In this document: positions 45,223 to 57,897 of the stretch, one piece after another | Position numbering within the stretch: the stretch's first letter is position 1 | Layout of the letters: the number at the start of each line of letters is the position of its first letter | From: Bacteroidetes bacterium 37-13 | Lineage (GTDB): Bacteria > Bacteroidota > Bacteroidia > Chitinophagales > LD1 | Reading direction: 5' to 3' | Assembly: GCA_001897535.1 (NCBI GenBank) | Contig: MKTC01000040.1 | Location: forward strand, 1 to 64,000 | Length of the DNA stretch: 64,000 nucleotides | Notes under the pieces: generated by a model | What the model saw: only the letters and a program-made list of their open reading frames with translations | Databases searched by the model: none | What the model was told of the DNA's origin: nothing | Made by a program: the position numbers and the translations under genes

Positions 45223-45831
45223 ATGAAAGTAACTTTAATTGGTGCATCTGGTTTAGCAAAAGATTTAGTGGGTGCGTTTGGATACGAAAATTATATACGT
45301 GGTGTAACTTTGTTTGATAATGTAACCGAAGCGAACGAAGAAATACTTTCTAACCACTATCCAATTATTCGCACAAAGGAGGCTTTGAAAAAACACTTTG
45401 AAACTGTTTCTCCTTTTTTTATTGTAGCAATTGCATCACCTGCAAAGCGGAGAAAGATGGCAGCAGAAATAAAAGCGCTTGGAGGTATAAATATTTCTTA
45501 TTTCTGTTCTCAAGCTTTAATAAGTCAATTTACAGAAATGTCGGAGCAAGGTGTTATTATCCAATTGGGATGTAATGTTTCAAGTGAGTGTGTTTTAGAA
45601 GAAGGGGTGTTTTTAAATGTACGCTGTATGCTTGGGCATGGTGTAAAAATTGGCAAGTACACTACCTTATCGCCAGATGTAAAAGTGCTTGGAAATGTTT
45701 CCATTGGGGAAAATTGTGTAATTGCAACCGGTGTAACTATTATGCCTAATGTGAAAGTTGGCAACAATGTAAAAATAGGAATGAACAAACTAATAACCAG
45801 TGATATTCCTGATAACACAGAGTTGTTTTAG
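45223..45831 (+). CDS. NeuD/PglD-like sugar O-acyltransferase (left-handed beta-helix)
   Basis: A 202-aa protein. The N-terminal Rossmann-like domain (MKVTLIGASGLAKDLVGAF) binds the sugar nucleotide; from about residue 95 hexapeptide repeats follow ([IVL]GxxxxI; for example VKIGKYTTLSPDVKVLGNVS and IGENCVIATGVTIMPNVKVG). Members acetylate amino or hydroxyl groups of surface sugars. It is the first gene of the 45-54 kb cluster. Confidence 0.9.
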   Translation: MKVTLIGASGLAKDLVGAFGYENYIRGVTLFDNVTEANEEILSNHYPIIRTKEALKKHFETVSPFFIVAIASPAKRRKMAAEIKALGGINISYFCSQALISQFTEMSEQGVIIQLGCNVSSECVLEEGVFLNVRCMLGHGVKIGKYTTLSPDVKVLGNVSIGENCVIATGVTIMPNVKVGNNVKIGMNKLITSDIPDNTELF

Positions 45832-45869
45832 ATTGAACAAAATTGCTAATGAATAAACAAGAATAGCGA

Positions 45870-46646
45870 ATGAATTTTTTTGAAACTTTTAGTGGTAATA
45901 TATCAGAGTTCAATGAGCTTTTTCAGAAAACAAAGCTTGTGCATGTACTACCCAATAAAGTTGGTTTATCAGCTGATGCTTATTTTAGAAAACTTGCGGC
46001 AGCGTGTGGCATTCCTTTAATTCATGATGAAGAACCAGCAACAGGGAAATTGGTGATTGATAGATGGTCAATTATTGAATATAATCCAGCAAAGGGCGAT
46101 ACTTACAAGTATAGCAATACGGCACAGCCACTTCATATTGATTACAGCTATTTTTCCTTCGATATTTATGCGGCATTTATTTTCTGCGAAAAGCAAGCTG
46201 AGTTTGGAGGCGCAACTCGTTTTATTGATGTAGATACTATTGTGCAAATTTTAGAAACAATAGATAAGACACTTTTAGAGCGCTTACAAAACACAATTAT
46301 TCAATTTGGTAGAGAAGGAAATCCGGTAGCAAACAAGAAAGATTTTATTCTCTCTAAAGATGATTTGGGTTGGAGAATTAACTGGAATTATTTTAGAGCA
46401 AAAGAAGACATTGTAAATATTACCTTGGTTGAAGATTTTAAGCGGTTTTTAGATGATTATATTGAGCAGAGTGGAGAATTAAAAGAGTTGAAATTGCAAC
46501 CCGGTGAAGGTGTTTTTTTTCATGATAAAAGAGTATTGCATGGACGCAATTCTTTTATTGGAAATAGACTTTTAAATAAAGCAGGAATAGTTACAACAGT
46601 GCCGGATATTGTGAAGAAGTTAATTGCCGAAGGGCGACAAAATTAA
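45870..46646 (+). CDS. TauD/TfdA-like Fe(II)/2-oxoglutarate dioxygenase
   Basis: A 258-aa double-stranded beta-helix oxygenase. The iron triad is visible as LHIDYSY (His-x-Asp, about 88) and the distal His in VLHGRNSF (about 224), with the 2OG-binding Arg probably in GNRLLNK. Such enzymes hydroxylate amino acids in natural products or cleave sulfonates; the clustering with surface-sugar genes suggests modification of a small molecule or glycan substituent. 38 bp after the acyltransferase. Confidence 0.85.
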   Translation: MNFFETFSGNISEFNELFQKTKLVHVLPNKVGLSADAYFRKLAAACGIPLIHDEEPATGKLVIDRWSIIEYNPAKGDTYKYSNTAQPLHIDYSYFSFDIYAAFIFCEKQAEFGGATRFIDVDTIVQILETIDKTLLERLQNTIIQFGREGNPVANKKDFILSKDDLGWRINWNYFRAKEDIVNITLVEDFKRFLDDYIEQSGELKELKLQPGEGVFFHDKRVLHGRNSFIGNRLLNKAGIVTTVPDIVKKLIAEGRQN

Positions 46647-46716
46647 GCACAAGATGAATGGCTACATTTGTGTTTTTACGCGTCTTTTTTTAAAACAATA
46701 CAATGCTAATCAATAG

Positions 46717-47430
46717 GTGAAAAAGAAACTCACATTTATCTCGTTAGCACTTTTGGTTTCTATCATTCTATTTTTTGAACTTGTTCCAGTATGGATTCAA
46801 GCAGCAACGCGTGATGAACTAAAAAATTGGTATCCAACTTTCGGAACGATAGCTTTCTATTTTATTCGAATATTTCTACCCATTGCATTTGCTGTTTCTA
46901 TTGGCGCATTACTCTTCTTATGGACAAAAGATGTTTTAAGCTATATCAAATATGGTGTAGAGTTTTTAAGAGATAAAATTAGTAACAATAGAAGAGGATT
47001 TTTCTACGCTGTTTTCTTAATGATTTTAGTTGCTCAATTTTATTACAACTATAATTATGATGAGGTTTATCCTGCTGTGATGATGCCACTGTTTGGGCAA
47101 GGAATCTATCCAAATCCGATAGAGGTAGAAACAGATGAATTGATTGTGAAGAACTGTAATGAACAACTATATACTTTGCAATTTTATGAGTTGCTAACAG
47201 AAGTAATTGGCGATGAGGAGGGCAAAATGATTTCTGCTAAAAAGATAACGCAAGTTCCACTAACGGATAACTTGAAGTTGTGGTTGAATATACATGCGCG
47301 AAAGCGATTGAAAGAAAATTGTATTAAAGAAATTGAAATAATAAAAATTACAAGCGAATACTTTTACAATGGACAACAATTTAGCTTGAAGAATGAGAAG
47401 AAAGAACAGCTTCACAAAATTACTTATTGA
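46717..47430 (+). CDS. Membrane protein of unknown function, partner of HTTM-like protein (copy 1)
   Basis: A 237-aa protein starting with GTG. Three membrane segments fall in the first ~110 residues (LISLALLVSIILFFELVPVW-like; FIRIFLPIAFAVSIGALLFL; FFYAVFLMILVAQFYY); a ~120-aa extracytoplasmic domain follows, opening with PAVMMPLFGQGIYPNP. Not recognised. The gene at 50946 has the same plan (LWY motif after helix 1, three helices, then an FPMYNSF segment), and both precede an HTTM-like gene, overlapping it. Its stop overlaps the next ATG by 1 bp. Confidence 0.7.
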   Translation: MKKKLTFISLALLVSIILFFELVPVWIQAATRDELKNWYPTFGTIAFYFIRIFLPIAFAVSIGALLFLWTKDVLSYIKYGVEFLRDKISNNRRGFFYAVFLMILVAQFYYNYNYDEVYPAVMMPLFGQGIYPNPIEVETDELIVKNCNEQLYTLQFYELLTEVIGDEEGKMISAKKITQVPLTDNLKLWLNIHARKRLKENCIKEIEIIKITSEYFYNGQQFSLKNEKKEQLHKITY

Positions 47431-48539
47431 TGCAGACTTCAAAGTTGAATATTGTTGAAAGATGGTTGAACTATAATCCAATAGACGAAAGTGGATTAGC
47501 TGTTTTTAGAATTTTATTTTCATTCTTCTGTTTACTTTCACTTGTTGGTGTTTTGAGAATTGATACATTGACAATTTATCCCAACGAGTTTTATAAACCG
47601 CAAGTAAGTTTTGCATATCTTTTTGATAAGCTCCCACCTATTTATTTTTTATATCTTTTAGATACACTCTCAATTGTTTCTTTAGTTGGAATGCTGTTTG
47701 GTGTGAAAACGCAATGGAGTTCTATATTATTTGGCGTCTTTTTTATTTGTTCAGTTTCATTTATTTATGCATTTTCTAAAATCGGACATCAACATTTTAT
47801 GCCGTTTACGGCAATTATTTTTGCTTTCTCCGGTTGGGGAAACAAATACTCTATTGATGCAGTTTTTTCAAACAAGAACAATAAAAAAGGTGAGATTAAT
47901 GTTTATCCATTCTTTACTTTAATTATTGCGTTTTCATTTTTTACATCAGGGTTTGCAAAACTGCTTGGTGCTTGGCTCGATCCAAGTTTTCAAGCAGTAA
48001 GGTATTACCAACTTCGCGATTTGTTTTTTGTTGAACGATCTAATCTATTAACCCATTTTACTGCTTATGATTTAACTTCAAAGATGTTTTGGGAATTGAT
48101 GGATTACTTTATTGTAGCCATAGAAATACTACCGCTTTTTTTTATGTTTTATCCTAAAGTATTTCGCTACTTTATGTTTGGGTTAGCAAGTTTTCATCTT
48201 GGTGTTTATCTTGTTATGAATATCACATTTGGCATGTATCCACTAATATATTTACCGTTTATTGCAGATTGGAAGCATTCGTTTTTAATGGCTAAGATAA
48301 GGGGGCTTTTCAATGAAATTAGATTTGAAAAAAAGTTGCTTCAAATCGCATTTTTAATCGTGCTATTTGTTGCTGTGATTTTGCATTACATACTCAATTT
48401 TAATGATGTTAGAGGATTAAGTTTACATAGAGGAGTCATACTTGTAATGTCTTATATCATTACTTTATATTTCTTTTTAGAAGCAATGTTTATTAACTAT
48501 GCAAGGGATAAGGTCGTTGAGTTAAAGGCTGAAAAATAG
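47430..48539 (+). CDS. HTTM-like (vitamin K-dependent gamma-carboxylase-related) membrane protein, copy 1
   Basis: 369 aa with about eight membrane helices. The HTTM fold is suggested by the N-terminal ESGLAVFRILFSFFCLLSLV, the GHQHFMPFTAIIFAFSGWG helix pair and the SGFAKLLGAWLD motif before a short extracellular loop. Gamma-carboxylase-like proteins in bacteria are of unknown activity; the eukaryotic relatives oxidise vitamin K. Family assignment is by pattern and not certain. The ATG at 47430 is used. Confidence 0.65.
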   Translation: MQTSKLNIVERWLNYNPIDESGLAVFRILFSFFCLLSLVGVLRIDTLTIYPNEFYKPQVSFAYLFDKLPPIYFLYLLDTLSIVSLVGMLFGVKTQWSSILFGVFFICSVSFIYAFSKIGHQHFMPFTAIIFAFSGWGNKYSIDAVFSNKNNKKGEINVYPFFTLIIAFSFFTSGFAKLLGAWLDPSFQAVRYYQLRDLFFVERSNLLTHFTAYDLTSKMFWELMDYFIVAIEILPLFFMFYPKVFRYFMFGLASFHLGVYLVMNITFGMYPLIYLPFIADWKHSFLMAKIRGLFNEIRFEKKLLQIAFLIVLFVAVILHYILNFNDVRGLSLHRGVILVMSYIITLYFFLEAMFINYARDKVVELKAEK

Positions 48540-48553
48540 AGTACATTAGAGAA

Positions 48554-49474
48554 ATGTCATCAATAAAAGTTTCTGTAGCAATTCTTACTTATAATCAAGA
48601 AAATTCAATTCGTGAAGCAATAGAAAGTGTTTTGTCGCAACAGGTTAATTTTAATGTTGAAGTTATTGTGGTAAATGATGGCTCTACTGATAATTCTGAT
48701 GCTGTCATAAAAGAGTTGGCAGTGCTTTCTCCTCAGATTGTATATGTTCATCACAAAGAAAATTTAGGGATTAGAAGTAGTGTAATTGAGGTTAGTAAAA
48801 TATTGAAAGGAGAGTATGTTGCTGTTTTAGATGGAGATGATTTGTGGTGCTATCCACATAAGCTGCAAACGCAGATAGATTTTTTAGATAACAATGCTGA
48901 GTATGAAGGTTGTTTTCACGACACGGCAATACAGAATATGGTAAAGAATGGCAATAGTTATTTTGCGGCACACAAGTATTATTCTCAACGATATAGCTAT
49001 GAGAACGATTTCTTTTTCCCTGATATTGTAGATAGAATTTCGATTATTTCCTCCTCGTCTTCGGTGATGCGAGCAAGGAGACTAAAGAAATTGAACATGA
49101 GTATTTTAGATGACAATTTATCCATAGACTGGAAGTTGAAAGTGCTGATAATTTTAGATGATAAGTTTAAGTATTTTAATGAGGTCTGGTCTGTATATAG
49201 AAATCACGATGGAGGGATATCAAAAAGCAATAAGGTAAAGTTTCACTTGTCTCATATAAGATTTTTGAGACAGTTATTGGAAAAAGAGTGGTTTGAAAAT
49301 AGACAGTACGATATATATAGAGCAATTTCAAGCGAGTACAGAGTGCTATTAACTATCAAAGAAAGTAATGAAACGATTGATAAACAAAAACTATTTCCGC
49401 AATACCTAAAGTCTGAATTTGCTAGATTATGGTATTTTAGAAAGCAGTTTTTAGGTTCTAATACTAAGCAGTAG
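48554..49474 (+). CDS. Family 2 glycosyltransferase
   Basis: A 306-aa GT-A protein: AILTYNQENSIREAIESVLS, VIVVNDGSTDNSD, and the metal-binding LDGDDLWCYPHKLQ. The C-terminal half is helical (MRARRLKKLNMSILDD, VWSVYRNHDGGIS), as in WbbD/EpsH-like surface polysaccharide transferases. Composition is AT-rich with many AGA and ATA codons. 14 bp after the HTTM-like gene. Confidence 0.92.
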   Translation: MSSIKVSVAILTYNQENSIREAIESVLSQQVNFNVEVIVVNDGSTDNSDAVIKELAVLSPQIVYVHHKENLGIRSSVIEVSKILKGEYVAVLDGDDLWCYPHKLQTQIDFLDNNAEYEGCFHDTAIQNMVKNGNSYFAAHKYYSQRYSYENDFFFPDIVDRISIISSSSSVMRARRLKKLNMSILDDNLSIDWKLKVLIILDDKFKYFNEVWSVYRNHDGGISKSNKVKFHLSHIRFLRQLLEKEWFENRQYDIYRAISSEYRVLLTIKESNETIDKQKLFPQYLKSEFARLWYFRKQFLGSNTKQ

Positions 49475-49516
49475 AATTAGAAATAAATTTTAAAAATGTG
49501 GTACGAAGAAATAATA

Positions 49517-50953
49517 ATGTTTCAGAAGTTATTTAGAAGGTTAGTTTGGCTCTTAGTACTCTTAATTTTAGTTAGTTGCCATCGAGATAAAGAATTACTT
49601 AGAGAACGCTTTTCTATAAAGCAAGAATTGAACTTTGATTCTACTCAGAGAGTTTTGATTATCGAAAATCCTCACAGCTATCAAGTTGCTTTTCATCTTA
49701 AGGTAAGTAACTTATTTCCTTTAGATAGTGAAGACATAAAACAAATTGTTGAGTTGCATGCAAAGGAAAATAAAGTGCCAATAGAGCAAGCTGCATGGCA
49801 ATTTGTAAATCAATTAACCTTTAATAATTTACCTTACACAACAGAGAGATGGCAACATAATCCACAATTATTCATTAACTCAATTGGAGGTGGCTATTGT
49901 GATGATAGAGCTACAACACTAGTTGCTATTTGGAAAAACTGGTTCGATTCGGCACGTGTGGTAAATTTAGGCGGGCATGTTGTAGCTGAAGTTAAAAGCA
50001 ATGGCAAATGGCAAATGTTTGATTCTGATAAAGGAGTTGCATATTTAGATGAGGACAAAGAAGTATGTTCAATAGATGAATTGGAAGATTCCGCAAAATG
50101 GATTTCTAATCCAAAAGAAGGGTATGTTTTAGGTAATAATGTTGCTTTAAAATGTCCAACTCCAAGAGCCAAAGAACTTGCCAGCTTATATGCTTCAGAT
50201 AGTAATAATGTTGATGTTACAAAATGGCATTTGAGGTATAAAGAACTAAGTAGCCTATTTATTCTGCCAAGTAATTCAAGAATAGAATTGATAATGGATG
50301 TTCCATATAAATTAGTGATTCATTTAAGTCCCGAATCTAAAGGAGAATTACAGATTCCATTTGTGCCATACAAAGCATCGGGGAATATTGATTTTATTGA
50401 AAATGGAAACTTGCAGTCAGTAAATTCAAACAACTATCTTTTTAGTAATAACGAATTTCATAATAATTTACAGATAGTTAAGGCTGGACAGAAGAGTAAA
50501 ATTGAGTATTTAATCAACCCGAAATTAGATGAATTTGTTACAAGTAATCGTCTCTATATAAATAGTACGGATAGTTTAAAATTATTTACAGAGCGCCTTT
50601 CTGAACCAATTCAAAATGTATTGTTTGGTGAAGTAGGTTTATATTTTGATATAATTTTAAAAAATTATAGCAGCGAATTGGAAGAGTGGAGTAAGTTAGA
50701 GATTGATAACTTAGTATATAATGATTTTGAGGATATGTTTTTATCCTTTTTAGAAGAAGATAGTGATATTACAAGTGAGCAAATAAAGAAGAACGTAATG
50801 GTGTTTAGAAATGTCTATTTGAGCTTTTGTGATGATGAAAAAAAAATGAAAAAATATAAAAGAGCTTATCCGGTGAGTATGCTCCTTTTGTTTGCTTCAA
50901 TTAAAGATAATAAATTGGATTATTTTAAGAGTCTGACAAATATGCATGATTAA
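49517..50953 (+). CDS. Transglutaminase-like lipoprotein
   Basis: A 478-aa lipoprotein (lipobox LILVSC, Cys about 19). A papain-like transglutaminase core carries the triad GGGYCDDRATT (Cys about 127), GGHVVAEV (His about 154) and MFDSDKG (Asp about 169). The remaining ~300 residues are a beta-rich and then helical region I do not recognise. Bacterial members may be proteases or cross-linkers acting on surface proteins or peptidoglycan. Overlaps the next gene by 8 bp. Confidence 0.8.
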   Translation: MFQKLFRRLVWLLVLLILVSCHRDKELLRERFSIKQELNFDSTQRVLIIENPHSYQVAFHLKVSNLFPLDSEDIKQIVELHAKENKVPIEQAAWQFVNQLTFNNLPYTTERWQHNPQLFINSIGGGYCDDRATTLVAIWKNWFDSARVVNLGGHVVAEVKSNGKWQMFDSDKGVAYLDEDKEVCSIDELEDSAKWISNPKEGYVLGNNVALKCPTPRAKELASLYASDSNNVDVTKWHLRYKELSSLFILPSNSRIELIMDVPYKLVIHLSPESKGELQIPFVPYKASGNIDFIENGNLQSVNSNNYLFSNNEFHNNLQIVKAGQKSKIEYLINPKLDEFVTSNRLYINSTDSLKLFTERLSEPIQNVLFGEVGLYFDIILKNYSSELEEWSKLEIDNLVYNDFEDMFLSFLEEDSDITSEQIKKNVMVFRNVYLSFCDDEKKMKKYKRAYPVSMLLLFASIKDNKLDYFKSLTNMHD

Positions 50954-51617
50954 AGTAACTCCTAAATTTTTTAGTTTAACTGTACTTGTTGCTATTGTAT
51001 TTGTATGGAGTTTGGTGCAATATCAATGGTGGGTTTTAGCTTCACTGACTGAATTTCGTTTGTGGTATCAAAATACGGGTTTGTTATTATGGATAGCTAA
51101 ATCTGCTTTTGTTGCGGTAGGTTTTTTTGCCTTTTTGTTCTTGGTATTTTTTACAATAAAATACTTGCTCATTTATGCACTCAAAATCTTTAGGAACGAA
51201 AGATTTCAGAAAGTTTATATCAATAGCATTTTTTTTATACTGATGGTAATTTGTGGTTGGTATGTTAAAACAGAACATCCTTTTTGCGATTTTCCAATGT
51301 ATAATTCATTTCCAAATTGGTCTATTGTTTTTATGATGGAGGATATGAATGGAAATCAACTTCCGTTATCAACTTTCAGTAATTATAGCGCAAGTGATAT
51401 TCCTGATTTATATTTTAATTTTATGAATAATGCTCATGAACCTTATGGGCGTTTAGAAAGTAATGAATGGGCGTTAAAGGCAGGTGCTGAAATCGGTAGA
51501 AAAATTAAACTTAAGCAAGAGCTAAAAGGAGGATTTAGACTGGTGCGGGTCTATTACCATATTAAAAGCCATAAAATAGTTGAGGAGCGAACTGTGTTGT
51601 ATGAAAGAAATATTTAA
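50946..51617 (+). CDS. Membrane protein of unknown function, partner of HTTM-like protein (copy 2)
   Basis: A 223-aa protein with three membrane segments (FFSLTVLVAIVFVWSLV, IAKSAFVAVGFFAFLFLVFF, VYINSIFFILMVICGWYV) and a ~115-aa extracytoplasmic domain beginning CDFPMYNSFPNWSIV. The layout and the FRLWYQNTG / PMYNSF motifs parallel the gene at 46717 (LKNWYPTFG / MPLFGQG), so they are probably paralogues. It overlaps the next gene by 17 bp. Confidence 0.7.
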   Translation: MIKVTPKFFSLTVLVAIVFVWSLVQYQWWVLASLTEFRLWYQNTGLLLWIAKSAFVAVGFFAFLFLVFFTIKYLLIYALKIFRNERFQKVYINSIFFILMVICGWYVKTEHPFCDFPMYNSFPNWSIVFMMEDMNGNQLPLSTFSNYSASDIPDLYFNFMNNAHEPYGRLESNEWALKAGAEIGRKIKLKQELKGGFRLVRVYYHIKSHKIVEERTVLYERNI

Positions 51618-52488
51618 AAAATATTGGAGCAACAGCTACTCAATATTGGAATGGCAGTGGATGAAGTATTCTTTATCATTTATTTGGATAGCTTCAATTG
51701 CAAAAATATTGTTGTTGCAGCAAACCATAAGCTACCCTCGTTCTATATGGCGATGGATAAATCATGATTGGATACAACTGCCTTTAGTTAAAGTTATGGT
51801 TTTTATTGCAGCTGCATTTGCTTTGTGGCAATACATTAGAGAGAAAGACATGAAGCGGTCATTAACTGTAATTACACTTGTTTCAATTCTGGTTTTTTCA
51901 CTTTCTGATTCCTACGGTTATTTTGATAGGTACGATTTAATGTCTTGTGTATGGATAGCACAATGGGTTGCTTATGTTTTATTATCGCCTGAAAAACATG
52001 ATATACCACAAATGAGAATTCAGTTTTCAGTTCAGGCAGTTGTGGGTGTATATTTTTTGGCAGGAATCAACAAACTAGTGTCTTCCGGTTGGACTTGGGG
52101 ACTAAGCACAGAAGCATTCGCGCTACAAGTGATGAAAGGTAATATGGTTGATTATGCACAAGATGGAAGTATTGGCGCACTTCATTCGGCAACTTATCTT
52201 TCACAGATAGTCTTGAGTTATCCTGTTTTATTTAGTGCTTTACTTTCTCTTTCTTTATTTCTTGAGTTAGCTTGTGTGGTTGTTCTTTTTAGTAAAAAAC
52301 TCAGGATTATTTTTGGCTTGTGCTTTTTGGGAATGCATATTGGTATAGCGATATTTTTGAAAATCCATTTGCTTTCTACGGTTCCAATAGCAATGTTTTT
52401 TCTATTAAATCCAATGTATTTGATTGCAGAGTTTATAGTAAATGTTAGAACCAAGTTGATTCGTTGCTTTATACAACTAGGCCTTTAG
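51601..52488 (+). CDS. HTTM-like membrane protein, copy 2
   Basis: 295 aa with about seven membrane helices. VGVYFLAGINKLVSSGWTWG parallels the SGFAKLLGAWLD motif of the copy at 47430, and the GLCFLGMHIGIAIFLKIHLL helix parallels ASFHLGVYLVMNI there. Both belong to the same broad family, but the two copies are well diverged. The ATG at 51601 is chosen. Confidence 0.6.
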   Translation: MKEIFKKYWSNSYSILEWQWMKYSLSFIWIASIAKILLLQQTISYPRSIWRWINHDWIQLPLVKVMVFIAAAFALWQYIREKDMKRSLTVITLVSILVFSLSDSYGYFDRYDLMSCVWIAQWVAYVLLSPEKHDIPQMRIQFSVQAVVGVYFLAGINKLVSSGWTWGLSTEAFALQVMKGNMVDYAQDGSIGALHSATYLSQIVLSYPVLFSALLSLSLFLELACVVVLFSKKLRIIFGLCFLGMHIGIAIFLKIHLLSTVPIAMFFLLNPMYLIAEFIVNVRTKLIRCFIQLGL

Positions 52489-52534
52489 TTGGTGTTTTAT
52501 GTATTATATTTGATTCTACTCGCTGCTTTAACCA

Positions 52535-54577
52535 ATGATACACACACTATTCAAATTGGAACAATATCTTTATTCCAGGTCAACGAAACAGGGCTTTGTG
52601 TTTTTTCTATTGTGCACTGTGCTTTTATCTACTTTGGTTGTATTGTTTCATTATGTGGGGTATTCGTTTCTTTTTAGCTCGCCAATTAATGAACTTCAAC
52701 AGTATTATCCTAGATGGTATTGGTTGGTTTATACGATGCTTAAAATCATTGAATTGTTTTATTACACAGTAGTAGTAATTCAACTATATATATTGTCATC
52801 TCGGCTATTTGCAAATAGAACAATTAAATGGGTAGTGATAATTTCAGGAATTAGTGGAGTGTATTTTTGGGAAATACCTCTTTTGCCACTCTCTGTGTCT
52901 TTGGTTTTCCTCTATGCGTTATTGGTTTTTATGGATTGGGAATTGTTTATTGCAAGGTGGAATTTTTTAAGCAAGCATAAAATTCTTGAACCAAGCATAA
53001 AATTGATTGATGTTCGAGAAAAATGGATTGTGCTTGCATTGGTAGTGCTTGCGTTTTTATTGAGGTTATTATGGATTTTACTTACCGATAATTCAGGTAA
53101 TGGCGATGCGGGTATGCGTTTATTCGGAACGCAAAATTGGATATTTAGATGTTCAATATTAAATGAAAGTAGAATTGGTATTTTAGACCTTCCTGTAGTA
53201 TATCTGTTTCCTTCTCGCGATTGGCTGCCTTTGCATTACTACTTAATGTATGCTGCAAAATTAGTTAGTGGTGAGTTGATATATTCTTCGCGTATTCTTA
53301 CTGCACTTTTTGGAGCTCTTTCTGTTATACCGATTTACAAGTTGGCAGGGCTAAAGTTTAATCGAACTACTGCTTTAATTTCTGCGCTTATCCTAACTTT
53401 TTATCTTTTTCATATCTATTTGTCTTCTTTAGTACTTAGCGAGCCATTTTACATATTCTTCCTACTATGGGCTTATTATTTCATCGAAAATTGGAGGGTC
53501 TCCAATAATAATATTGGGTTGGTTTATATTGGACTGATGCTGGCTTGCCTTAACTTATTGCGGTTTGAGGGTTGGTTTTTCAGCGCTTGTTGTGTGGTGT
53601 TGCTTCCATTATTAAAAAATATTACTGAGTGGCGTAAATACTTATACTTTTTGGCTATTGTATTTACTTCAATTATTTTTGTAATGTATTGTGAGGTTAC
53701 ATTAGGTGAACACCCTTTACGGGGTATTCTTTATAGTGATTATGAGGTTAAAGCAACTTTAACAAGTAATCCAATTTCTATTTTGGGGATAATAACTACA
53801 TATCGAAATTCTTGGCTGCCATTGAGTTTCTTGGGTTTGTTATTTTTTTCTGCATACTATACTTGGAAGTATAACAATAAATTATTGTTATGTCATATTT
53901 TATATGTAATTCCACTATTCCCTTTCATTTATAAGCTTTTTAATGGCACACTAACTGCACAGCCCAGATATATGCTATTGTATATGGTGCCACTAATTCC
54001 TTTTGTTGCTTATTTTTTTTATTTATTGTACCGTATTCTTCGGTTAAAATTATTCTTCGGTTTCTTTATATTTTATTTAGTGTTGTTCAATGTTGTATTT
54101 TACAAACAATTGCAAAGTGGTTATCCGATATTAAAATACCCAAGTGGATTTCATAAAAGTGCTACTTTCGTTAGAAAAATTGAACAATGTAGTTTTTACA
54201 TTGATGCCGATGTGGACTATGCCCATTTTAATTGGAATGCAATAAATGGCTTTAATTCAGTAGGAATTGATGGTGAAGAATATAGGAGAATCAAGGCAAA
54301 GTTGAAATTACCTGATAAGGTAGATATTGTTATATCATCAAGAGAAAGAAGAATAGCATCTTCGGTAGAAAGTAATATGGATATATGGAGAGTTTGGAAC
54401 AGTAAAAAACTTGATACACTTCTATACAATAAGAGCATTTCCCATATTGTAATTTTTCCTAACGGCACACTAAATGGCTACTTGAAATTCAGTAGAGATA
54501 CAGAAAAATTTAATGGATACACTTTTATTAGACTATGTAACTTTGATGGTTACATGGTATATGAAGTAATAAAATAA
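52535..54577 (+). CDS. ArnT/PMT-like (GT39/GT83) integral membrane glycosyltransferase
   Basis: A 680-aa protein with about 12-13 membrane helices and a C-terminal soluble domain of ~130 residues. The first lumenal loop contains the acidic GNGDAGMRLFGTQNWIFRCS motif and the second has FPSRDWLPLHYYLMY, as in lipid-linked-sugar-dependent GT-C transferases. It transfers a sugar from a polyprenyl phosphate at the outer face of the inner membrane. It closes the 45-54 kb cluster. Confidence 0.85.
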   Translation: MIHTLFKLEQYLYSRSTKQGFVFFLLCTVLLSTLVVLFHYVGYSFLFSSPINELQQYYPRWYWLVYTMLKIIELFYYTVVVIQLYILSSRLFANRTIKWVVIISGISGVYFWEIPLLPLSVSLVFLYALLVFMDWELFIARWNFLSKHKILEPSIKLIDVREKWIVLALVVLAFLLRLLWILLTDNSGNGDAGMRLFGTQNWIFRCSILNESRIGILDLPVVYLFPSRDWLPLHYYLMYAAKLVSGELIYSSRILTALFGALSVIPIYKLAGLKFNRTTALISALILTFYLFHIYLSSLVLSEPFYIFFLLWAYYFIENWRVSNNNIGLVYIGLMLACLNLLRFEGWFFSACCVVLLPLLKNITEWRKYLYFLAIVFTSIIFVMYCEVTLGEHPLRGILYSDYEVKATLTSNPISILGIITTYRNSWLPLSFLGLLFFSAYYTWKYNNKLLLCHILYVIPLFPFIYKLFNGTLTAQPRYMLLYMVPLIPFVAYFFYLLYRILRLKLFFGFFIFYLVLFNVVFYKQLQSGYPILKYPSGFHKSATFVRKIEQCSFYIDADVDYAHFNWNAINGFNSVGIDGEEYRRIKAKLKLPDKVDIVISSRERRIASSVESNMDIWRVWNSKKLDTLLYNKSISHIVIFPNGTLNGYLKFSRDTEKFNGYTFIRLCNFDGYMVYEVIK

Positions 54578-55924: not shown

Positions 55925-56980
55925 ATGGCATTTTCAACAGTACATAATATATTTATAGAAGCTTTAGCTGCTGCGGTTCCTGCTCACACTGAAGATAATT
56001 TAGAGTTGCAACTTTTAAGCGAAAAAGAGAGAGAACTTTTTGTGAAAACTGTTGGTATTCGCTACCGTAAAGTGGCGCAAAAAAATATTACTGCCTCAGA
56101 TCTTTGTTTGGCATGTGCCGAAGATTTATTCAGTAAAAAAGTAGTGAATCGAAGCGAAATAAAAGTGCTGATTTTTATTACTCAAACACCAGATTATTTA
56201 ATCCCGAATACGGCTTCAATTCTTCAGCATAAATTAGGATTGCAAAAAGATTGCATTGCTTTTGATGTAAATTTAGGGTGTTCCGGTTTTGTTTACGGTT
56301 TAAATTTAGCTGCAAGTTTACTTGCAAATATTACTGAAGGAAAGGCACTGCTATTGGTTGGTGATGTTTCAACGGCAGTTATTTCGAAGCGCGATAAAAG
56401 TGTGGTGCCACTTTTTTCTGATGCAGGTTCGGCAACTGTATTGGCAAGAAAGACAAATAAAATAATGCAGTTTAATTTGCAAACCGATGGCGCAGAATAT
56501 GACGATATCATAATTTCCGATGGTGGAATGCGCAATAAAATTTCTGGCAATTCACTTCAAGAAATAGAAACAGGAAAAAGTAATTTTCGTGCGCCAATTC
56601 ACATGAAATTAGATGGTATTAGAATATTTAATTTTGCTTTACGCGAAGTAGCGCCAAACATAAAAGCGCTTTGCGAAGCTGCCAAGAAAACACAAGACGA
56701 AATTGATTTTTTTGTGCTGCACCAAGCCAATCGTTTAATGCTCGAAAGTGTTCGCAAAAAGTTAGGTGTTGAAGAAACGAAAGTGCCATATTCTCTTTAC
56801 GATTTTGGCAACACAAGTTCGGCTTCCATTCCACTTACAATGGTTACAAATTTACGTGATGATTTAATGAATAGAAAGTTGAAATTACTGCTGAGTGGTT
56901 TTGGCGTTGGACTTTCGTGGGGCAGCGTTTTGCTTGAAACGGAAAATATATTTGTTTCGCCACTTATTGAAATGGCATGA
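55925..56980 (+). CDS. 3-oxoacyl-ACP synthase III (FabH-like)
   Basis: A 351-aa thiolase-fold condensing enzyme. The triad is NLGCSGFVYGL (Cys about 118), VLHQANRLML (His about 265) and FGNTSSASIP (Asn about 296). It condenses an acyl-CoA or acyl-ACP starter with malonyl-ACP, or transfers acyl groups. In the ACP-KASIII-GT2 arrangement it is likely dedicated to a surface acyl-sugar or lipid. It overlaps the glycosyltransferase by 4 bp. Confidence 0.93.
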   Translation: MAFSTVHNIFIEALAAAVPAHTEDNLELQLLSEKERELFVKTVGIRYRKVAQKNITASDLCLACAEDLFSKKVVNRSEIKVLIFITQTPDYLIPNTASILQHKLGLQKDCIAFDVNLGCSGFVYGLNLAASLLANITEGKALLLVGDVSTAVISKRDKSVVPLFSDAGSATVLARKTNKIMQFNLQTDGAEYDDIIISDGGMRNKISGNSLQEIETGKSNFRAPIHMKLDGIRIFNFALREVAPNIKALCEAAKKTQDEIDFFVLHQANRLMLESVRKKLGVEETKVPYSLYDFGNTSSASIPLTMVTNLRDDLMNRKLKLLLSGFGVGLSWGSVLLETENIFVSPLIEMA

Positions 56981-57897
56981 GCACACCGCAATATTCAATT
57001 GTAGTTCCGGTTTACAGAAGTGAACAAACTTTGCCCGAATTATGCGCGGAGCTTATTAAGTTTTTTGCCTCAAAGAATCTTAGTTTTGAAATTGTATTAG
57101 TAAACGATGCCAGCCCTGATAATACTTGGGAAACGGTAACGAAAATTAAAGCAGAATATACTGCGTTTGTTACAGCAGTAAATCTTGCAAAAAATACAGG
57201 ACAACACCATGCACTTTTGTGCGGCTTTCAATATGCTAAAGGTGAATTTGTAATTACTATTGATGACGATTTACAGTTTCACCCAAATGAAATAGAAAAG
57301 CTAATTTACCAGCAGCAACTCACTAATGCAGATTTGGTGTATGGGTTGCAAATGCAAAAACAGCATACTTATATTAGAAATATGGGCAGCAAGGCGGTGG
57401 CACATATATTTACCAATTTTGGAAGCACACCGGGCAAAGGCTCTTCTTTTCGTTTAATAAAATCAAGTGTAGTACAAAAGATAAAGGATTTTAATCAGCG
57501 ATATATTTTTTTAGATGAACTCTTAGCATGGTTTGCTACCAATACACAGTTTGTAGGTGTAAATCATTACAAACGAGAACATGGAAAATCTGGTTATACC
57601 CTTTTTAAATTAGCACTTTGGACTCTCCGTCTTATTTTTACTTACACCACTTTACCACTTCGTGTAATGACATATTTTGGCTTGTTGGCATTTCTTATTT
57701 GCCTTGGCTTTGTTGCCTATTTTATTTACATGAAAGTTACCTGTGGTGCAGAACTTGGCTTCACGGCACTAATCACTTCAATAATTATGAGTACCGGACT
57801 TATACTATTTAGTCTTGGTATTATTGGTGAATATTTAAGCCGTTTATTTCAACTTCAAACCAAACGACCTGTTTTTTTTGTGAAAGAAGTGTTGTAA
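56977..57897 (+). CDS. Family 2 glycosyltransferase, ArnC/GtrB-like, membrane-anchored
   Basis: A 306-aa transferase with a GT-A domain (VVPVYRSEQTLPEL, VLVNDASPDNTW, TIDDDLQFHPNEI about 96) and two C-terminal membrane helices (about 228-250 and 262-285). Such enzymes charge polyprenyl phosphate with a sugar. It might supply the GT-C enzyme encoded 2.4 kb upstream, but that is speculation. Confidence 0.92.
   Translation: MSTPQYSIVVPVYRSEQTLPELCAELIKFFASKNLSFEIVLVNDASPDNTWETVTKIKAEYTAFVTAVNLAKNTGQHHALLCGFQYAKGEFVITIDDDLQFHPNEIEKLIYQQQLTNADLVYGLQMQKQHTYIRNMGSKAVAHIFTNFGSTPGKGSSFRLIKSSVVQKIKDFNQRYIFLDELLAWFATNTQFVGVNHYKREHGKSGYTLFKLALWTLRLIFTYTTLPLRVMTYFGLLAFLICLGFVAYFIYMKVTCGAELGFTALITSIIMSTGLILFSLGIIGEYLSRLFQLQTKRPVFFVKEVL

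What the first reader, a model, noticed from the sequence alone, without database searches (positions are those of the whole stretch)
45223..54577. Unrecognised nine-gene surface-modification cluster with a twice-occurring [three-helix protein + HTTM-like protein] pair
A run of plus-strand genes, mostly overlapping or close-spaced, encodes an acyltransferase, a TauD-like dioxygenase, pair 1 (46717 + 47430), a GT2, a transglutaminase-like lipoprotein, pair 2 (50946 + 51601) and a GT-C enzyme. In both pairs a small protein with an LWY/NWY motif and a P-M-[FY] segment precedes an HTTM (gamma-carboxylase-related) protein and overlaps it. The pairing implies a two-subunit membrane redox or carboxylase-like enzyme acting on a quinone or a surface polymer. 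AT-rich composition suggests transfer.
Basis: partly seen in the sequence, partly recalled or inferred. Interest (0 to 1): 0.65.

Follow-up and report, generated by a model that had tools for sequence, protein, structure and literature searches.

The report
Paired carboxylase-like membrane enzyme subunits
This bacterial gene cluster carries two copies of a two-gene system in which a relative of the human vitamin K-dependent carboxylase is made together with a small membrane-anchored partner, an arrangement that recurs across bacteria and suggests a widespread split version of this enzyme acting at the cell surface.

Summary
In detail: nine tightly spaced plus-strand genes, with two pairs of [small TM protein + HTTM-like protein]. 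HTTM1 and HTTM2 miss the Pfam and NCBIfam models, but profile comparison, a 71-protein alignment and an AlphaFold model (VIA Z 12-13 to human GGCX; next unrelated hit 6.5) place them in the VKGC/HTTM superfamily. Residues at GGCX Lys218 (catalytic base) and His287 are invariant in all 70 bacterial proteins aligned; His160 is kept in HTTM1 but is mostly Arg in this family's HTTM2.
The pairing is a rule. In about 81 of 82 loci (some duplicates) a short HTTM protein follows a small TM+soluble partner; full-length VKGC-like proteins do in 0 of 29. Known examples of the partner are SdpA and DUF5819; small1 and small2 match no model. The two pairs are old lineages (clade support 100 and 98), lie side by side in 9 of at least 12 sampled genomes having both, form one operon in one, and are fused HTTM1~small2 in one genus.
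Best reading: split, VKGC-like, probably menaquinol-dependent membrane enzymes modifying an envelope glycan or lipid. Architecture is well supported, chemistry inferred, substrate unknown. That the partner equals the VKGC luminal domain is untested structurally and unsupported by sequence.

The parts
45223..45831 (+). NeuD/PglD-type hexapeptide acyltransferase
   Evidence: TIGR03570 E 7e-37 (below its curated cut-off), PF00132
45870..46646 (+). TauD-like 2OG-Fe(II) oxygenase
   Evidence: PF02668 E 2e-15, over cut-off
46717..47430 (+). small1: N-terminal 2-TM module, third TM, soluble domain
   Evidence: No Pfam/NCBIfam match; homologues precede every HTTM1-clade homologue examined
46717..46926 (+). 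N-terminal 'NWYP' 2-TM module of small1
   Evidence: HMM from small2 N-termini matches residues 4-70, E 3e-4
47071..47094 (+). small1 core motif PAVMMPLF (orthologues WPAFVFPGF)
47427..48539 (+). HTTM1: VKGC/HTTM-superfamily transmembrane subunit
   Evidence: Profile match to canonical VKGC-like proteins 97.9%; homologues exceed the PF05090 cut-off; clade support 100/100
47787..47789 (+). HTTM1 His121, aligned to GGCX His160
47958..47960 (+). HTTM1 Lys178, aligned to GGCX Lys218
48195..48197 (+). HTTM1 His257, aligned to GGCX His287
48554..49474 (+). GT2 glycosyltransferase
   Evidence: PF00535 E 5e-27
49496..50953 (+). lipoprotein with transglutaminase-like C-H-D pattern; two paralogues in this genome
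   Evidence: By eye; no Pfam hit above cut-off; paralogues on C28 and C13, C28 next to a further pair
50946..51617 (+). small2: N-terminal 2-TM module, third TM, soluble b-a-a-b-b core
   Evidence: No Pfam/NCBIfam match; model pLDDT 77, soluble core about 90
51279..51302 (+). small2 core motif PFCDFPMY (family HPFSxxPMY)
51601..52488 (+). HTTM2: VKGC/HTTM-superfamily transmembrane subunit
   Evidence: AF2 pLDDT 85.8, pTM 0.81; PDB best matches all GGCX, Foldseek prob 0.96-0.97, VIA Z 12-12.9
51928..51930 (+). HTTM2 Arg117, aligned to GGCX His160
52072..52074 (+). HTTM2 Lys165, aligned to GGCX Lys218
52336..52338 (+). HTTM2 His253, aligned to GGCX His287
52535..54577 (+). GT-C (PMT_2-type) membrane glycosyltransferase
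   Evidence: PF13231, 27.3 bits vs cut-off 26.1; homologue follows another small2-HTTM2 pair in this genome (L044)

Best explanation
Each pair encodes a two-subunit integral membrane enzyme of the vitamin K-dependent carboxylase (VKGC/HTTM) superfamily. The HTTM protein is the catalytic transmembrane part. The small protein is a membrane-anchored soluble subunit, probably facing the periplasm, which may take the place of the C-terminal luminal domain that full-length VKGC proteins carry in cis. Shown here: membership of the superfamily, near-obligate gene pairing, invariant Lys218 and His287 equivalents, and conservation of the two pair types as a double module. Inferred: that the two products bind each other; that the universal lysine deprotonates menaquinol, oxygenation makes a strong base, and that base abstracts a proton from an envelope substrate bound by the small subunit. 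HTTM1, which keeps the His160 equivalent, may carboxylate; HTTM2, which mostly has Arg there in this family, may do a different follow-on reaction. The likely substrate is a surface glycan or lipid made by the same cluster. The two pairs probably act in one pathway and perhaps one complex.
For: Pairing in all 21 HTTM2 loci of the family and about 81/82 short-HTTM loci in all, against 0/29 full-length VKGC-like loci. Profile relations with controls under 1%. GGCX structural match. Lys218 and His287 equivalents invariant in 70/70 bacterial sequences; His160 kept in 15/16 HTTM1, Arg in 16/21 family HTTM2. Lys218 as the residue that starts the reaction: PMC9146348. MenD present in this genome. Both HTTM genes within about 3 kb in 9 genomes of 4 families, one four-gene operon in G208, HTTM1~small2 fusion read in G032 and G079. 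Separate clades. Cluster neighbours with GTs, flippase, Wzt-like ATPases, 2OG oxygenases.
Against: No substrate, no biochemistry. The VKGC luminal-domain equivalence has no significant sequence support (6/60 shuffles as good), and the small2 model had no convincing PDB match. No VKOR in this genome, so quinone epoxide recycling would need another route. Many HTTM2 pairs have no glycan genes nearby.
Confidence: 0.55

Rival explanations
1. The pairs are SdpAB-like maturation factors: they process or modify a secreted peptide or lipoprotein rather than a glycan or lipid.
For: SdpA+SdpB is the studied case of the same architecture (TIGR04033/TIGR04034 hits in Bacteroidota with SdpA upstream); YitP and YitO are proposed to be needed for YIT toxin processing (PMC6818787). 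A lipoprotein with a transglutaminase-like pattern lies between the pairs.
Against: No SdpC-like or other short precursor gene in the cluster; the SdpB model matches nothing in this genome; small1 and small2 do not match SdpA models; neighbours are mostly glycan genes.
Confidence: 0.2
2. The HTTM proteins are non-catalytic membrane scaffolds or transporters that keep the fold but not the chemistry.
For: His160 is lost in SdpB-like proteins and most family HTTM2; no VKOR; the near-constant neighbour of the distant HTTM2 pair is an MMPL transporter.
Against: Lys218 and His287 equivalents are invariant in 70/70 otherwise highly divergent proteins, which is unexpected for a scaffold.
Confidence: 0.15
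3. The two pairs are a recent tandem duplication or chance neighbours in a mosaic glycan island, with no joint function.
For: In the family most genomes with HTTM2 pairs lack HTTM1; the window pairs are separated by two genes; low GC island.
Against: HTTM1 and HTTM2 are separate clades with 100 and 98 support, so not recent duplicates; co-location in 9 of at least 12 genomes having both, a four-gene operon and a fusion.
Confidence: 0.1

Closest known systems
SdpA-SdpB (TIGR04034/PF17418 + TIGR04033), Bacillus cannibalism toxin maturation
   Same: Small single-TM protein with a soluble domain encoded directly upstream of a short HTTM-type protein; Lys218 and His287 equivalents kept
   Different: No SdpC precursor here; no match to SdpA/SdpB models; SdpB lacks the N159/H160 motif that HTTM1 largely keeps; glycan-type neighbours
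Vitamin K-dependent gamma-carboxylase GGCX and bacterial VKGC-like proteins (PF05090, 424-515 aa)
   Same: Transmembrane fold, Lys218, His287; N159/H160 motif largely kept in the HTTM1 clade
   Different: C-terminal luminal domain absent from the HTTM protein; a separate small protein is encoded instead; carboxylation untested
DUF5819 (PF19136) + HTTM pairs of Streptomyces relatives
   Same: Same two-gene layout, W-x-[LF]-F-A-P motif after the TM
   Different: small1 and small2 have PM[FY]/PGF motifs and match no Pfam family

Membership tests
HTTM / VKGC superfamily (PF05090) | Match to the curated Pfam model | tested here: not met
   Window HTTM1 and HTTM2 give no PF05090 hit; HTTM1 homologues of G032, G037, G079, G087, G137 and G148 exceed its cut-off. 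Not members by the model itself; the superfamily relation rests on the next two rows
HTTM / VKGC superfamily (PF05090) | Profile and fold similarity to the VKGC transmembrane domain | tested here: met
   hhalign: VKGC-like set vs HTTM1 97.9%, vs joint HTTM2 set 95.8%; HTTM2 model vs GGCX VIA Z 12-12.9, about 250 residues, rmsd about 5
HTTM / VKGC superfamily (PF05090) | Catalytic Lys218 and conserved His287 | tested here: met
   70/70 bacterial sequences
Vitamin K-dependent gamma-carboxylase | N159/H160 active-site motif | tested here: inconclusive
   HTTM1 clade N 13/16, H 15/16 (window G, H); family HTTM2 mostly Arg at 160
Vitamin K-dependent gamma-carboxylase | Luminal domain in the same chain | tested here: not met
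   Absent from HTTM1 and HTTM2 (lengths 370 and 295 aa; model); the small partner as replacement has no significant sequence support
Vitamin K-dependent gamma-carboxylase | Glu carboxylation with quinone epoxidation | not testable with these tools
   Needs biochemistry
SdpAB | TIGR04033 / TIGR04034 or PF17418 match | tested here: not met
SdpAB | Small TM partner gene directly upstream of a short HTTM gene | tested here: met
SdpAB | Adjacent SdpC-type precursor | tested here: not met
   None among the nine genes or immediate flanks, by inspection of the ORFs

The most novel reading that the evidence does not exclude
A large class of bacterial enzymes are split vitamin K carboxylase relatives: a short HTTM catalytic subunit and a separately encoded small subunit that stands in for the luminal domain, including SdpAB. 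The double module small1-HTTM1-small2-HTTM2 is one complex that uses menaquinol oxygenation to modify surface glycans or lipids.
Probability: 0.3. Interest if true: 0.82.

Novelty: new variant of a known kind. Interest (0 to 1): 0.62.

Why it matters
HTTM proteins are common in bacteria and, apart from animal GGCX, their chemistry is largely unknown (own knowledge). The pairing rule (short HTTM protein with partner, full-length VKGC-like protein without) gives a concrete structural hypothesis for SdpA, SdpB, DUF5819 and two unnamed partner families at once. It predicts that the invariant lysine is the common catalytic feature and that carboxylation is only one possible outcome. It makes the role of SdpAB in toxin maturation directly testable.

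Tried and rejected
Recent tandem duplication: rejected by the tree. HTTM proteins occurring alone: rejected for short ones. Small partner equals VKGC luminal domain by sequence: one hhalign run gave 37%, but the shuffle test did not support it (6/60 as good), so it is kept only as a hypothesis. Fold searches with the small2 model gave no convincing match, and GGCX was not among the rows. PDB sequence searches with the HTTM1 and HTTM2 profiles: no relevant hit. Low-E Pfam hits for some small2 homologues (NLPC_P60 N-term, TMEM117) judged spurious. Empty-site comparison: the closest genome has a different gene next to prfA, so no clean insertion site was found. TGase-like lipoprotein: apart from two paralogues in this genome, only one weak match in 295 other sampled Bacteroidota, so it is not a general partner. 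The profile scan of genome contigs reached 15 loci, 8 of them in the same family. The paper library holds nothing on DUF5819.

Full report
What is there. The nine genes are real, all on the plus strand and closely spaced or overlapping. Standard models identify a NeuD-like acyltransferase, a TauD-type oxygenase, a GT2 and a PMT_2-type GT-C enzyme. The lipoprotein between the pairs has a transglutaminase-like C-H-D pattern by eye only. The four proteins of the two pairs match no Pfam or NCBIfam model.

Is the pairing real? In the family of this genome, 13 of 30 genomes carry HTTM2 homologues, and all 21 such loci have a small2-type gene directly upstream, almost always overlapping (the partner of one, L043_8, was recognised by its motif in the alignment rather than by search). 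The HTTM1 homologue of G009 follows a small1 homologue. Across 296 Bacteroidota genomes HTTM1-profile hits occur in 21 and HTTM2-profile hits in 40. Every HTTM1-clade locus examined has an upstream small protein with a TM and mostly a [WY]Pxxxx[PG]-type motif; the HTTM2 loci of the distant group have one with [FY]WPFSIYPMF. SdpB-like and other short HTTM proteins have an SdpA-like, DUF5819-like or unnamed partner in the same position. In total about 81 of 82 loci with a short HTTM protein have the partner; the count includes some loci listed twice, and some where the automatic TM threshold failed (the automatic count is 68) but the motif is present in the right place. L118 showed none. By contrast none of 29 full-length VKGC-like proteins (424-515 aa, with their own C-terminal domain) has such a partner.

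Are the two pairs related to each other? Yes, but anciently. HTTM1 and HTTM2 show nothing by BLAST and 92% by profile comparison, with unrelated polytopic families below 1%. In a maximum-likelihood tree HTTM1 (100/100) and HTTM2 (96.6/98) are separate clades, each with members from distant families. Small1 and small2 profiles align over nearly their full length (score 32.6; best of 60 shuffles 25.1). Both window proteins also carry an N-terminal 2-TM 'WY' module, present in a GT-C protein of the same genome too, and absent from most short homologues.

The double module. HTTM1 and HTTM2 hits lie within about 3 kb of each other in nine genomes (G000, G032, G037, G079, G087, G137, G148, G208, G232), from four families. 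At least three others (G200, G240, G315) have both on different contigs. In G208 the order is small1-HTTM1-small2-HTTM2 on one strand. In G032 and G079 HTTM1 is fused at its C-terminus to small2 and followed by HTTM2, with small1 upstream (L101, L102); G037 and G087, of the same genus, have HTTM1 frames of the same length. The order HTTM-then-small inside this fusion is the domain order of VKGC.

What they are. The HTTM2 model (pLDDT 85.8, pTM 0.81) has only GGCX structures as good PDB matches (Foldseek probability 0.96-0.97 although E-values are only 0.5; VIA Z 12-12.9 over about 250 residues, next unrelated hit 6.5). The tool warns that helical bundles can reach Z 13 by chance; the gap to the next rows and full coverage argue against that here. 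Canonical Bacteroidota VKGC-like proteins align to human GGCX at E 3e-46 and put their lysine on Lys218. In an alignment of 70 bacterial HTTM proteins plus GGCX, Lys218 and His287 are invariant; His160 is present in all canonical, 15/16 HTTM1 and 9/9 distant HTTM2 proteins, is mostly Arg in the family HTTM2 proteins, and is lost in SdpB-like ones. In GGCX Lys218 starts the reaction, being the base that deprotonates reduced vitamin K, and Lys218 and His160 are essential (PMC9146348).

How it may work (inferred). The shared lysine suggests a shared first step, quinol deprotonation and oxygenation to a strong base; this genome encodes MenD and so probably makes menaquinone. It has no VKOR. The variable His160 position suggests that the second step differs between HTTM1 and HTTM2. 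The small subunit may bind substrate and cap the active site, as the luminal domain does in GGCX. That analogy rests on complementarity of occurrence and on the fusion order; sequence comparison does not support common descent, and no direct structure comparison could be made.

Substrate. Several loci are polysaccharide-type clusters: GT4, flippase, FkbM methyltransferase; Wzt-like ABC ATPase, B12-radical SAM proteins and many PhyH or WelO5-like oxygenases; GT2, PhyH, Wzt-like and GT-C on C29 of this genome; Cupin_8 oxygenase, LuxE, GT2 and the lipoprotein paralogue on C28, beside a fifth, very diverged pair. A 2OG-type oxygenase lies near the pair in the window, C28, C29, L026, L032, L035, L036, L038 and L041. 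Ten or more other family loci show no such genes. The distant HTTM2 pairs lie next to an MMPL transporter in most loci, which would also suit a lipid substrate.

Verdict. The new points are the pairing rule, the double module with its fusion, the invariant Lys and His, and two partner families without a model. The chemistry and substrate are open.

Noticed in passing
L139-L167 (canonical VKGC-like loci): Nearly all full-length VKGC-like proteins of Bacteroidota have a lipoprotein of about 370 aa with an N-terminal FDRxAxLxNWADNIIIPxF motif (imelysin-like by eye) directly upstream: a second conserved pair.
   Followed up: no
G000:C28, L192:577-1939: A fifth, very diverged small+HTTM-like pair (VEWFPFLNYGMY motif) next to LuxE, Cupin_8 oxygenase, GT2 and a paralogue of the window lipoprotein.
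   Followed up: partly
window 46717-46926, 50946-51197; L044:9063-11009: An N-terminal 2-TM module with a WY(P) motif is shared by small1, small2 and a GT-C enzyme. The window GT-C has a similar segment by eye (INELQQYYPRWYW) but no HMM hit.
   Followed up: partly
L036, L041, L038, L026: Clusters with up to eight PhyH-type oxygenases, WelO5-like proteins, B12-radical SAM proteins and Wzt-like ATPases: heavily oxidised surface glycan or natural product loci in Bacteroidota MAGs.
   Followed up: partly
L098-L117: The distant HTTM2 pair is a near-constant neighbour of an MMPL-family transporter of about 838 aa.
   Followed up: no
window 55925-57897: A KAS III-type enzyme and a GT2 follow the cluster after two minus-strand genes; they may belong to the same pathway.
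   Followed up: no
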